Shown: positions 46,790-48,504 of the stretch, in pieces
Numbering within the stretch: the stretch's first letter is position 1
Layout: every line of letters starts with the position of its first letter
Assembly (NCBI RefSeq): GCF_000091045.1
Contig: NC_006685.1
Span: forward strand, 916,201-976,200
Source: Cryptococcus deneoformans JEC21
Taxonomy: Eukaryota > Basidiomycota > Tremellomycetes > Tremellales > Cryptococcaceae
Length of the DNA: 60,000 nt
Direction of reading: 5' to 3'
Program-made: the position numbers and the translations under genes
Notes under the pieces: model-generated
What the model was told of the DNA's origin: nothing
The model's database searches: none
The model's input: only the letters and a program-made list of their open reading frames with translations

Positions 46790-48504
46790 ATGAAGATAAG
46801 TGCGCCCCCACTGCCCGCTCCAGAAGGCTAACCCGCTCCGCCCCACACGCTCTGATCCTCGTCGGTGGTTTCGGTACCCGGCTTAGGCCCTTGACCGTGA
46901 GTTCTCCGCCGCTGCTGCCCTTCACCGCTCACCCCGCCACAGCTCTCGTGGCCCAAGCCTCTCGTCGAGTTCTGCAACAAGGTGAGTCCCCCTCTCGTCC
47001 GTGCGCGCCCACATGCTCATCCCCTGCGCAGGCCATGATGTGAGTCGCCTAGCCTGCTTCTCGTGACACGTGTCACGGCGCGTGCAGATGTTCTAGAAGC
47101 GGCACGTTTCATCGCGCGATGCGGCCACTGACAGTCTTCCCACAGCTTGCACCAAATCGAGGCTCTTGTCAAGGTGCGTGGCCCAGCTCATATGCCCAGT
47201 CGCACTGCCTGACTCTTGTTACAGGCGGGTGTCAAGGACATCGTCCTCGCTGTCAACTACCGACCAGAGGTCATGGTCTCTGTACTCAAAAAGACTGAGG
47301 AGGAGTTTGGCATCAACATCCACTTCAGCGTCGAAACCGAACCTCTCGGCACTGGTGCGTGAATAACGATAACAGTGACGCGCAGACTGATGTGTACCAA
47401 AGCGGGTCCCCTTGCTCTTGCTCGCGAAATCTTGGGCAAGGACGACTCTCCGTTCTTTGTTTTGAACTCTGATGTCACCTGTGTCTATCCCTTTGAGGCT
47501 TTCCGGTAAGGCTTGTGCAGTACCTCCATCTCTCGCCACTCGTCTGACTATTTGCGCAGAGACTTCCACATTGCCCACAAGTGCGAAGGTTCCATCATGG
47601 TCACCAAGGTCGCCGAGCCTTCTGCCTATGGTGTCGTGGTCACGAAGCCCAACTCCACTGTGATTGATCGATTCGTCGAGAAGCCCGTTGAATTCGTTGG
47701 TAACAGGATCAACGCTGGTATCTACATATTCAACCCCAGCGTTTTGGACAGGATTGAGGTGAGTCTGTCCCATGGCAAAGGGTAACATCCAAGCTCACGC
47801 CTTTTCCAGCTCCGTCCCACTTCTATCGAAAAAGAAATCTTCCCCGCCATCGCCGCCGACCAACAACTGCACTCCTTTGATCTTCAAGGGTTCTGGATGG
47901 ATGTCGGTCAACCAAAAGACTTCCTTGCCGGTACCTGCCTTTACCTTTCCCACCTCACTTCTCAACATTCTCCCTTGTTGACTGATCCCTCTCAAAACAA
48001 GTGGGTGTATGGTGGTAATGTGATGGTTGACCCTGTGAGTCGTGCTTTACAAAGTACCGTGGAGGCTCTAACATTGTTCGATAGTCTGCGGAAATCGACC
48101 CCACAGCCGTCATCGGCCCCAATGTCGTTATTGGTCCCGACGCGAAGATTGGGCCTGGTGTCCGTCTCCAGCGATGTGTGATCATGTCCAACGCTACCGT
48201 GCGAGACCACTCCTGGATTGCCAACTCCATTGTCGGGTGGAACAGCACGGTGGGGCGATGGACAAGAGTGGAGAACATTACAGTGTTGGGTGACGATGTG
48301 ACGATAAAGGACGAGCTCTATGTCAATGGTGCTTCAGTGTTGCCCCACAAGAGTGTAAGTGGGAAAGCTCGTCCAAGCTGCTGTGTTGGTACTAAACTAG
48401 CGGACGTTGTAGATCTCTACCTCTATCACTGAGCCCCGTATTGTTATGTGTAAGTGTCGCCGATGACGGAGACTGCGCGTTTTGCTGACTTGAGTGTCGC
48501 AGAA
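46790..48504 (+). CDS. PSA1: GDP-mannose pyrophosphorylase (mannose-1-phosphate guanylyltransferase)
   Basis: The enzyme makes GDP-mannose from mannose-1-phosphate and GTP for glycosylation, cell wall and, in Cryptococcus, capsule. About eleven exons encode roughly 363 aa, the family length. The N-terminal nucleotidyltransferase has LILVGGFGTRLRPLTLSWPK, PLVEFCNK, VNYRPEVM, ETEPLGTAGPLALAR, VLNSDV and FVEKPVEFVGNRINAGIYIF. The C-terminal left-handed beta-helix has ATVRDHSWIANSIVGWNSTV and EPRIVM. The N-terminus MKALILVGG is obtained only if the first intron is AT-AC (46796-46848). Exon 4 is 8 nt (47032-47039). The TAA stop is split by a terminal intron (48450-48502). Confidence 0.93.
46796..46848 (+). 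other. Probable AT-AC intron
   Basis: The 53-nt interval starts ATAAGT and ends CACAC, with a perfect CTAAC branch sequence about 20 nt before the end. Joining ATGAAG to GCTCTG gives the family N-terminus MKALILVGGFG. No GT-AG pair here gives that sequence. Confidence 0.75.
47062..47077. repeat. 16-bp perfect palindrome with CACGTG core
   Basis: CGTGACACGTGTCACG equals its own reverse complement and contains an E-box. It lies in the 106-nt intron after the micro-exon of the pyrophosphorylase gene. Confidence 0.8.

What the first reader, a model, noticed from the sequence alone, without database searches (positions are those of the whole stretch)
46796..46848. AT-AC intron immediately after the second codon of GDP-mannose pyrophosphorylase
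Removing ATAAGT...CACAC joins ATGAAG to GCTCTGATC and restores the family N-terminus MKALILVGG. A CTAAC branch sequence sits about 20 nt before the end, and the length (53 nt) is normal here. No GT-AG choice gives the catalytic start. The donor is the U2-type /ATAAGT form. An unusual splice in the first codons could act as a control point for an enzyme feeding wall and capsule mannan.
Basis: partly seen in the sequence, partly recalled or inferred. Interest (0 to 1): 0.75.

Follow-up and report, generated by a model that had tools for sequence, protein, structure and literature searches.

The report
Conserved AT-AC intron in GMPP gene
A fungal gene for making GDP-mannose is interrupted after its second codon by an intron with the rare ends AT and AC, and related yeasts appear to carry the same odd intron, so it looks like an old, stable exception to the usual splicing rule rather than a special switch.

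Summary
Confirmed at DNA level. Window 46796-46848 is a 53-nt intron (ATAAGT...CTAAC...CACAC) joining ATGAAG to GCTCTGATC, which gives MKALILVGG, the family start of GMPP-beta. The gene's other ten introns are GT-AG. No single GT-AG intron from this ATG keeps the frame. In relatives, Lys precedes A-LILVGG in 163 of 172 proteins that show the motif; His or Tyr does in 6, all Tremellomycetes, as expected if annotators read through an intron ending YAC. At the junction 6 of 6 allow YAC and 0 of 6 AG. The signals are U2-type. The same genome has well-supported AT-AC introns in a polyol dehydrogenase and DNA polymerase delta, a likely one in OTU1, and three weaker candidates. The proposed control point has no support: retention gives an early stop here but an apparently open frame in two relatives, and such introns are thought to persist because both ends must change together. 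New member of a known kind.

The parts
46790..46795 (+). exon 1 coding part, ATGAAG (Met-Lys)
   Evidence: residue 1 aligns to PDB GMPP
46796..46848 (+). AT-AC intron 1, 53 nt, U2-type signals
   Evidence: relatives
46796..46801 (+). 5' splice site ATAAGT (GTAAGT with A in first place)
46828..46832 (+). branch-site-like CTAAC, branch A at 46831, 17 nt before the intron end
46847..46848 (+). 3' splice site AC (CCACAC|GCT)
46849..46896 (+). exon 2, ALILVGGFGTRLRPLT
46790..48504 (+). coding region of GDP-mannose pyrophosphorylase (mannose-1-phosphate guanylyltransferase, beta type), 12 exons, 364 aa, stop TAA split by the last intron (48449, 48503-48504)
   Evidence: PDB matches; homologues

Best explanation
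46796-46848 is a real spliceosomal intron with AT-AC ends, removed by the ordinary (U2-type) spliceosome. U1 and U6 recognise a donor that is normal apart from its first base, U2 recognises CTAAC, and the A in first place meets the C in last place in the second step instead of the usual G and G (established for yeast; recalled). It probably existed in the ancestor of Cryptococcus, Kwoniella, Saitozyma and Apiotrichum and has stayed because changing either end alone harms splicing. Shown here: the sequence, the reading-frame need, the signature in annotated relatives, further AT-AC introns in the same genome. Inferred: splicing in cells, the spliceosome used, common ancestry, the reason for persistence.
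For: Joining gives MKALILVGG, the start of PDB chains 7d72_K (MKALILVGGYG) and 8yre_D (MKALILVGGFG) (human and plant origin recalled). From this ATG no GT-AG intron keeps the frame. Of the 179 homologues listed in two capped lists, 126 begin MKA and 15 MKG; Lys precedes the A-LILVGG motif in 163 of the 172 that show it, His in 4, Tyr in 2, other in 3. Of 12 entries named as genera that I recall as Tremellomycetes, 6 have His or Tyr there, 3 have MKALILVGG, 3 lack the start. Back-translation of the six: 6 of 6 allow YAC|GC, 0 of 6 NAG|GC; 3 fit ATGAAG|ATRAGT, 2 more fit ATGAAGATRA (then a forced GT), 1 lacks the start; 0 of 6 fit ATGAAG|GTRAGT. AT-AC introns in a polyol dehydrogenase and POL3 of the same genome restore ungapped PDB alignment across the junction. 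The OTU1 start predicted from an AT-AC intron (MTVK|IRLR) equals P0180, C. neoformans C23, over the first 24 residues. AT-AC is the most efficient pair after GT-AG in yeast, which has no minor spliceosome (PMC6726248, passages). An AT-AC intron in a Ganoderma gene with a polymerase-delta domain was confirmed by Sanger sequencing of PCR products (PMC11590231, passages).
Against: No RNA reads were examined. In K. dejecticola no CTRAY fits the last 30 nt. The 3 MKALILVGG entries may lack the intron or have another kind. Counts of the genome patterns exceed the reversed-pattern control in one of four searches only, and slightly (5 to 5, 35 to 88, 16 to 22, 22 to 19), so the other AT-AC introns rest on protein junctions, not on enrichment.
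Confidence: 0.93

Rival explanations
1. The intron is also a control point: its unusual donor is retained under some conditions, which stops translation after 13 codons and limits GDP-mannose for wall and capsule.
For: Retention gives MKISAPPLPAPEG then a stop; AT-AC introns would be expected to splice less efficiently than GT-AG (PMC6726248, passages).
Against: Annotated read-through is in frame and open in K. dejecticola and Saitozyma sp. JCM 24511, with the bias that only open introns get annotated. AT-AC introns occur in genes of unrelated function in this genome.
Confidence: 0.07
2. A normal GT-AG intron with an ATG further upstream gives a longer N-terminus.
For: 39 single-intron GT-AG combinations stay in frame.
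Against: All start from ATGs at 46486-46577 and leave ...LTRSAPH before ALIL, seen in 0 of 179 homologues; the ATG at 46790 gives the family start exactly.
Confidence: 0.03
3. A U12-type (minor spliceosome) AT-AC intron.
For: AT-AC ends. A fungal survey found minor-spliceosome RNA genes in one fungus only, Cutaneotrichosporon oleaginosum, which I recall as a Tremellomycete (PMC7072748, passages).
Against: Donor ATAAGT, not RTATCCTT; branch GGCTAACC, not TCCTTRAC (recalled). U12, U6atac and zf-U11-48K gave no match while U6 was found; but U1 was missed too, so these absences are weak. One paper reports that Basidiomycota lack U12 introns, on one rust species in which it nevertheless saw a U4atac RNA (PMC2846911, abstract, passages and one section).
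Confidence: 0.02
4. Sequencing error in the assembly hides a GT-AG intron.
For: Only the two end letters are unusual.
Against: Two separate errors would be needed; annotated relatives show the same signature.
Confidence: 0.01

Closest known systems
U2-type (class II) AT-AC introns, e.g. SCN4A intron 21 and other sodium-channel introns
   Same: AT-AC ends with G at +5, spliced by the major spliceosome; persistence explained as trapping (PMC2831892, passages)
   Different: Those are animal introns thought to descend from U12 introns; this is a 53-nt fungal intron two codons into a biosynthetic enzyme, and a U12 ancestor was not tested
AT-AC intron in Ganoderma lingzhi chr6g0094801 (polymerase-delta domain)
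   Same: Basidiomycete AT-AC intron missed by gene callers, confirmed by Sanger sequencing of PCR products (PMC11590231, passages); POL3 of this genome also has one
   Different: Whether the two polymerase introns lie at the same position was not tested; GMPP is another gene
AT-AC protointron in yeast SUT635
   Same: AT-AC splicing without a minor spliceosome (PMC6726248, passages)
   Different: It lies in a non-coding RNA; the GMPP intron is needed for the reading frame and appears shared between genera

Membership tests
U2-type AT-AC intron | AT first and AC last dinucleotide | tested here: met
U2-type AT-AC intron | U2-type donor positions +3 to +6 (RAGT, G at +5) | tested here: met
   ATAAGT at 46796; ATRAGT fits 3 of 6 relatives, ATRA 2 more, 1 lacks the start
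U2-type AT-AC intron | CTRAY branch site about 10-40 nt from the end | tested here: met
   CTAAC, 17 nt; possible in 4 of 6 relatives, not in K. dejecticola, K. shivajii too short to tell
U2-type AT-AC intron | removed in cells by U1/U2/U4/U5/U6 | not testable with these tools
   no RNA reads or snRNA mutants available
U12-type AT-AC intron | donor RTATCCTT | tested here: not met
   ATAAGTGC; rule as given in PMC2846911
U12-type AT-AC intron | branch TTCCTTRAC (recalled) | tested here: not met
   GAAGGCTAACC
U12-type AT-AC intron | minor spliceosome present in the genome | tested here: inconclusive
   U12, U6atac, zf-U11-48K not found; U6 found but U1 missed
GDP-mannose pyrophosphorylase, beta type | full-length similarity and MKALILVGG start | tested here: met
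   PDB 7d72_K, E 8.1e-140, residues 1-364 to 1-360

The most novel reading that the evidence does not exclude
Tremellomycetes, and perhaps basidiomycetes more widely, carry a small standing set of AT-AC introns of the major spliceosome, fixed at the same places in essential genes (GMPP, OTU1, possibly POL3) since before the Tremellales-Trichosporonales split. They are kept without a minor spliceosome because the paired ends form an evolutionary trap, and many published gene models of these species are wrong at those places.
Probability: 0.5. Interest if true: 0.6.

Novelty: new member of a known kind. Interest (0 to 1): 0.45.

Why it matters
The U2-type AT-AC introns discussed in the papers seen here are mainly in animal sodium-channel genes, where descent from U12 introns clouds their history. 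A conserved set in tractable yeasts, if these have no minor spliceosome, would let the first-base/last-base trap be tested directly. In practice, gene callers that allow only GT-AG appear to misannotate this gene's start in several published genomes.

Tried and rejected
A 27-nt GT-AG intron (46800-46826) noted early was a misreading and does not appear in the enumeration. Codon-usage scoring of candidate AT-AC introns did not separate real from chance sites and was dropped. Rows not examined: of 35 rows, 25 were scored; the rest were one same-donor row (L015), L025, L027, two repeats of L019 (L029, L030) and five rows without a locus. Of 22 rows, 16 were read, 3 share a donor with a row already read, and L055, L065 and L066 were not read. 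All 16 rows and 5 were read. By eye, L023 and L056 read better as GT-AG. The transcription-factor candidate L006 has no Pfam match. For the histidine kinase (L005) and importin (L046) an in-frame GT-AG rival exists; the AT-AC reading scores higher in Pfam (31.2 to 27.0 and 23.5 to 19.0 bits) but the rivals are not excluded. Pfam did not help at the POL3 junction, and for OTU1 it reaches only one residue before it. No OTU1 signature is seen in several relatives, e.g. P0207, P0210, P0212.

Literature: the ten searches listed no paper whose title or abstract start describes this intron or an AT-AC set in Cryptococcus. Passages of PMC3990503 report the usual splice consensus and a median coding intron of 55 nt. 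Passages of PMC6176087 give AT-AC at 0.09-5.19% of splice sites in RNA-seq of fungal pathogens; I did not check which species. Passages of PMC3936741, PMC10639083 and PMC3584512 held nothing on this case.

Full report
WHAT IS THERE. The window lies at G000:C3:916201-976200 of a genome of 19,051,922 bases in 14 contigs. At 46790 the sequence reads ATGAAG, then 53 nt from ATAAGT to CACAC, then GCTCTGATC. With this intron and ten GT-AG introns the gene gives a 364-aa protein ending at a TAA split by the last intron. It matches GMPP in the PDB over its whole length: 7d72_K at E 8.1e-140, 8yre_D, 7x8j_A and 7whr_B. 8yre_D and 7x8j_A share MKALILVGGFG letter for letter; 7d72_K has MKALILVGGYG and 7whr_B MRAVILVGGFG.

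ALTERNATIVES. I listed single introns (GT-AG, GC-AG, AT-AC) after any ATG at 46400-46848 that end by 46848 and enter GCT CTG in frame: 146, of which 39 GT-AG, 59 GC-AG, 48 AT-AC. From the ATG at 46790 there is no GT-AG option and two GC-AG of 20 and 23 nt. Of all 48 AT-AC options only 46796-46848 has an AT[AG]AGT donor or is at most 60 nt long. The GT-AG options start further upstream and leave ...LTRSAPH before ALIL, seen in 0 of 179 homologues. Two-intron combinations were not enumerated. Without splicing no in-frame ATG precedes ALILVGG in the open stretch from 46711. The full model (AT[AG]AGT, CTAAC, YAC, 40-80 nt) occurs at one donor in the 60 kb on both strands.

RELATIVES. Two protein searches, each listing its best 120 (of 3803 and 248 hits), gave 179 different homologues. 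Of these, 126 begin MKA and 15 MKG. In 172 the A-LILVGG motif could be read: Lys precedes it in 163, His in 4, Tyr in 2, Pro in 2, Thr in 1. Twelve entries carry names of genera that I recall as Tremellomycetes. Six have His or Tyr: Kwoniella shivajii, Kwoniella sp. DSM 27419, K. dejecticola, Saitozyma sp. JCM 24511, S. podzolica, Apiotrichum porosum. Three have MKALILVGG (Cutaneotrichosporon cavernicola, C. depauperatus, Naematelia encephala). Three lack the start (K. mangroviensis, K. botswanensis, C. deuterogattii). K. dejecticola, for example, is annotated MKISTTSLPLNPTQPRY-ALILVGG. A gene caller limited to GT-AG would produce this by reading through an intron that starts with AT and ends with YAC. 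Back-translation agrees: 6 of 6 allow YAC|GC and 0 of 6 NAG|GC; 0 of 6 allow a GT donor after ATGAAG; 3 fit ATRAGT, 2 more fit ATRA followed by a GT used as a false donor, 1 lacks the start. CTAAC is possible in 4 of 6; K. dejecticola has none in the last 30 nt and K. shivajii is too short to tell. The three MKALILVGG entries may have the intron or not. P0008, a 364-aa frame on a 1,283-base contig from source lgn, starts MKALILVGG; so long a frame in so short a contig suggests cDNA, which is inference.

OTHER AT-AC INTRONS IN THIS GENOME. Four pattern searches of the genome gave 5, 35, 16 and 22 rows; the reversed-pattern controls gave 5, 88, 22 and 19. The counts prove nothing, so I read protein junctions; the rows not read are given under Tried and rejected. 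Two are well supported. A polyol dehydrogenase at C3:1945021-1945089 (VVAT|GICGSD) aligns without gap to PDB 1e3j across the junction and scores 59.6 bits for ADH_N spliced against 43.5 with the intron read through. DNA polymerase delta at C11:185904-185962 (KVK|GAFERG) aligns without gap at the junction to Pol3 3iay. OTU1 at C14:440870-440922 (MTVK|IRLR) is likely: its predicted first 24 residues equal P0180, C. neoformans C23, though how that entry was annotated is unknown. Of 19 named Cryptococcus or Kwoniella OTU1 entries that I read, 5 have His or Tyr before VRLR; all five allow YAC|GT and none NAG|GT; the others give no such sign. Three candidates are weaker: a histidine kinase (C7) and an importin (C12) with in-frame GT-AG rivals of lower Pfam score, and a transcription factor (C9) with no Pfam match.

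MECHANISM. Donor and branch are U2-type. In yeast AT-AC is the best pair after GT-AG, without a minor spliceosome (PMC6726248, passages). U2-type AT-AC introns are proposed to be trapped because both ends must change together (PMC2831892, passages). In Ganoderma lingzhi 13 AT-AC sites are listed, and one, in a gene with a polymerase-delta domain, was confirmed by Sanger sequencing of PCR products (PMC11590231, passages). A survey lists 2 AT-AC introns not of U12 type in a rust fungus (PMC2846911, one section). U12, U6atac and zf-U11-48K were not found here; U6 was but U1 was not, so the absences are weak.

CONTROL POINT. Retention here gives a 13-codon peptide. In K. dejecticola and Saitozyma sp. 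JCM 24511 the annotated read-through is in frame, although only open introns can be annotated so. AT-AC introns also lie in unrelated genes. I see no positive evidence for regulation.

NOVELTY. AT-AC introns of the major spliceosome are a known kind. Ten searches of an open-licence library listed no paper that, from its title or abstract start, describes this intron or a conserved set in Tremellomycetes. I read only passages or single sections of the papers cited.

Noticed in passing
47032-47039: Exon 4 of the GMPP gene is an 8-nt microexon (GCCATGAT); the annotated relatives C. depauperatus (P0007), K. mangroviensis (P0011) and C. deuterogattii (P0037) go wrong at or start near this place, so it may be a second annotation trap in the same gene.
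   Followed up: partly
L004, L064, L047 (G000:C3:1945021-1945089, C11:185904-185962, C14:440870-440922): Further AT-AC introns in a polyol dehydrogenase, DNA polymerase delta and, likely, OTU1 of the same genome.
   Followed up: yes
L005, L006, L046: Weaker AT-AC intron candidates in a histidine kinase, a transcription factor and an importin.
   Followed up: partly
P0091 and P0107 (Uncinocarpus, Ascosphaera GMPP proteins): Annotated starts MKGTQPA and MKGTSCV...PA suggest a GT-AG intron one base further on (AAG G|GT) in these ascomycetes, so the two introns might share an origin with a one-base shift.
   Followed up: no
46444 and below, minus strand: A divergent gene starts about 346 bases upstream of the GMPP ATG; its protein MRIEKCYFCSANVYPGHGTMFVRNDAKCF... 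looks like a ribosomal-protein-L24-like family member (by eye).
   Followed up: no
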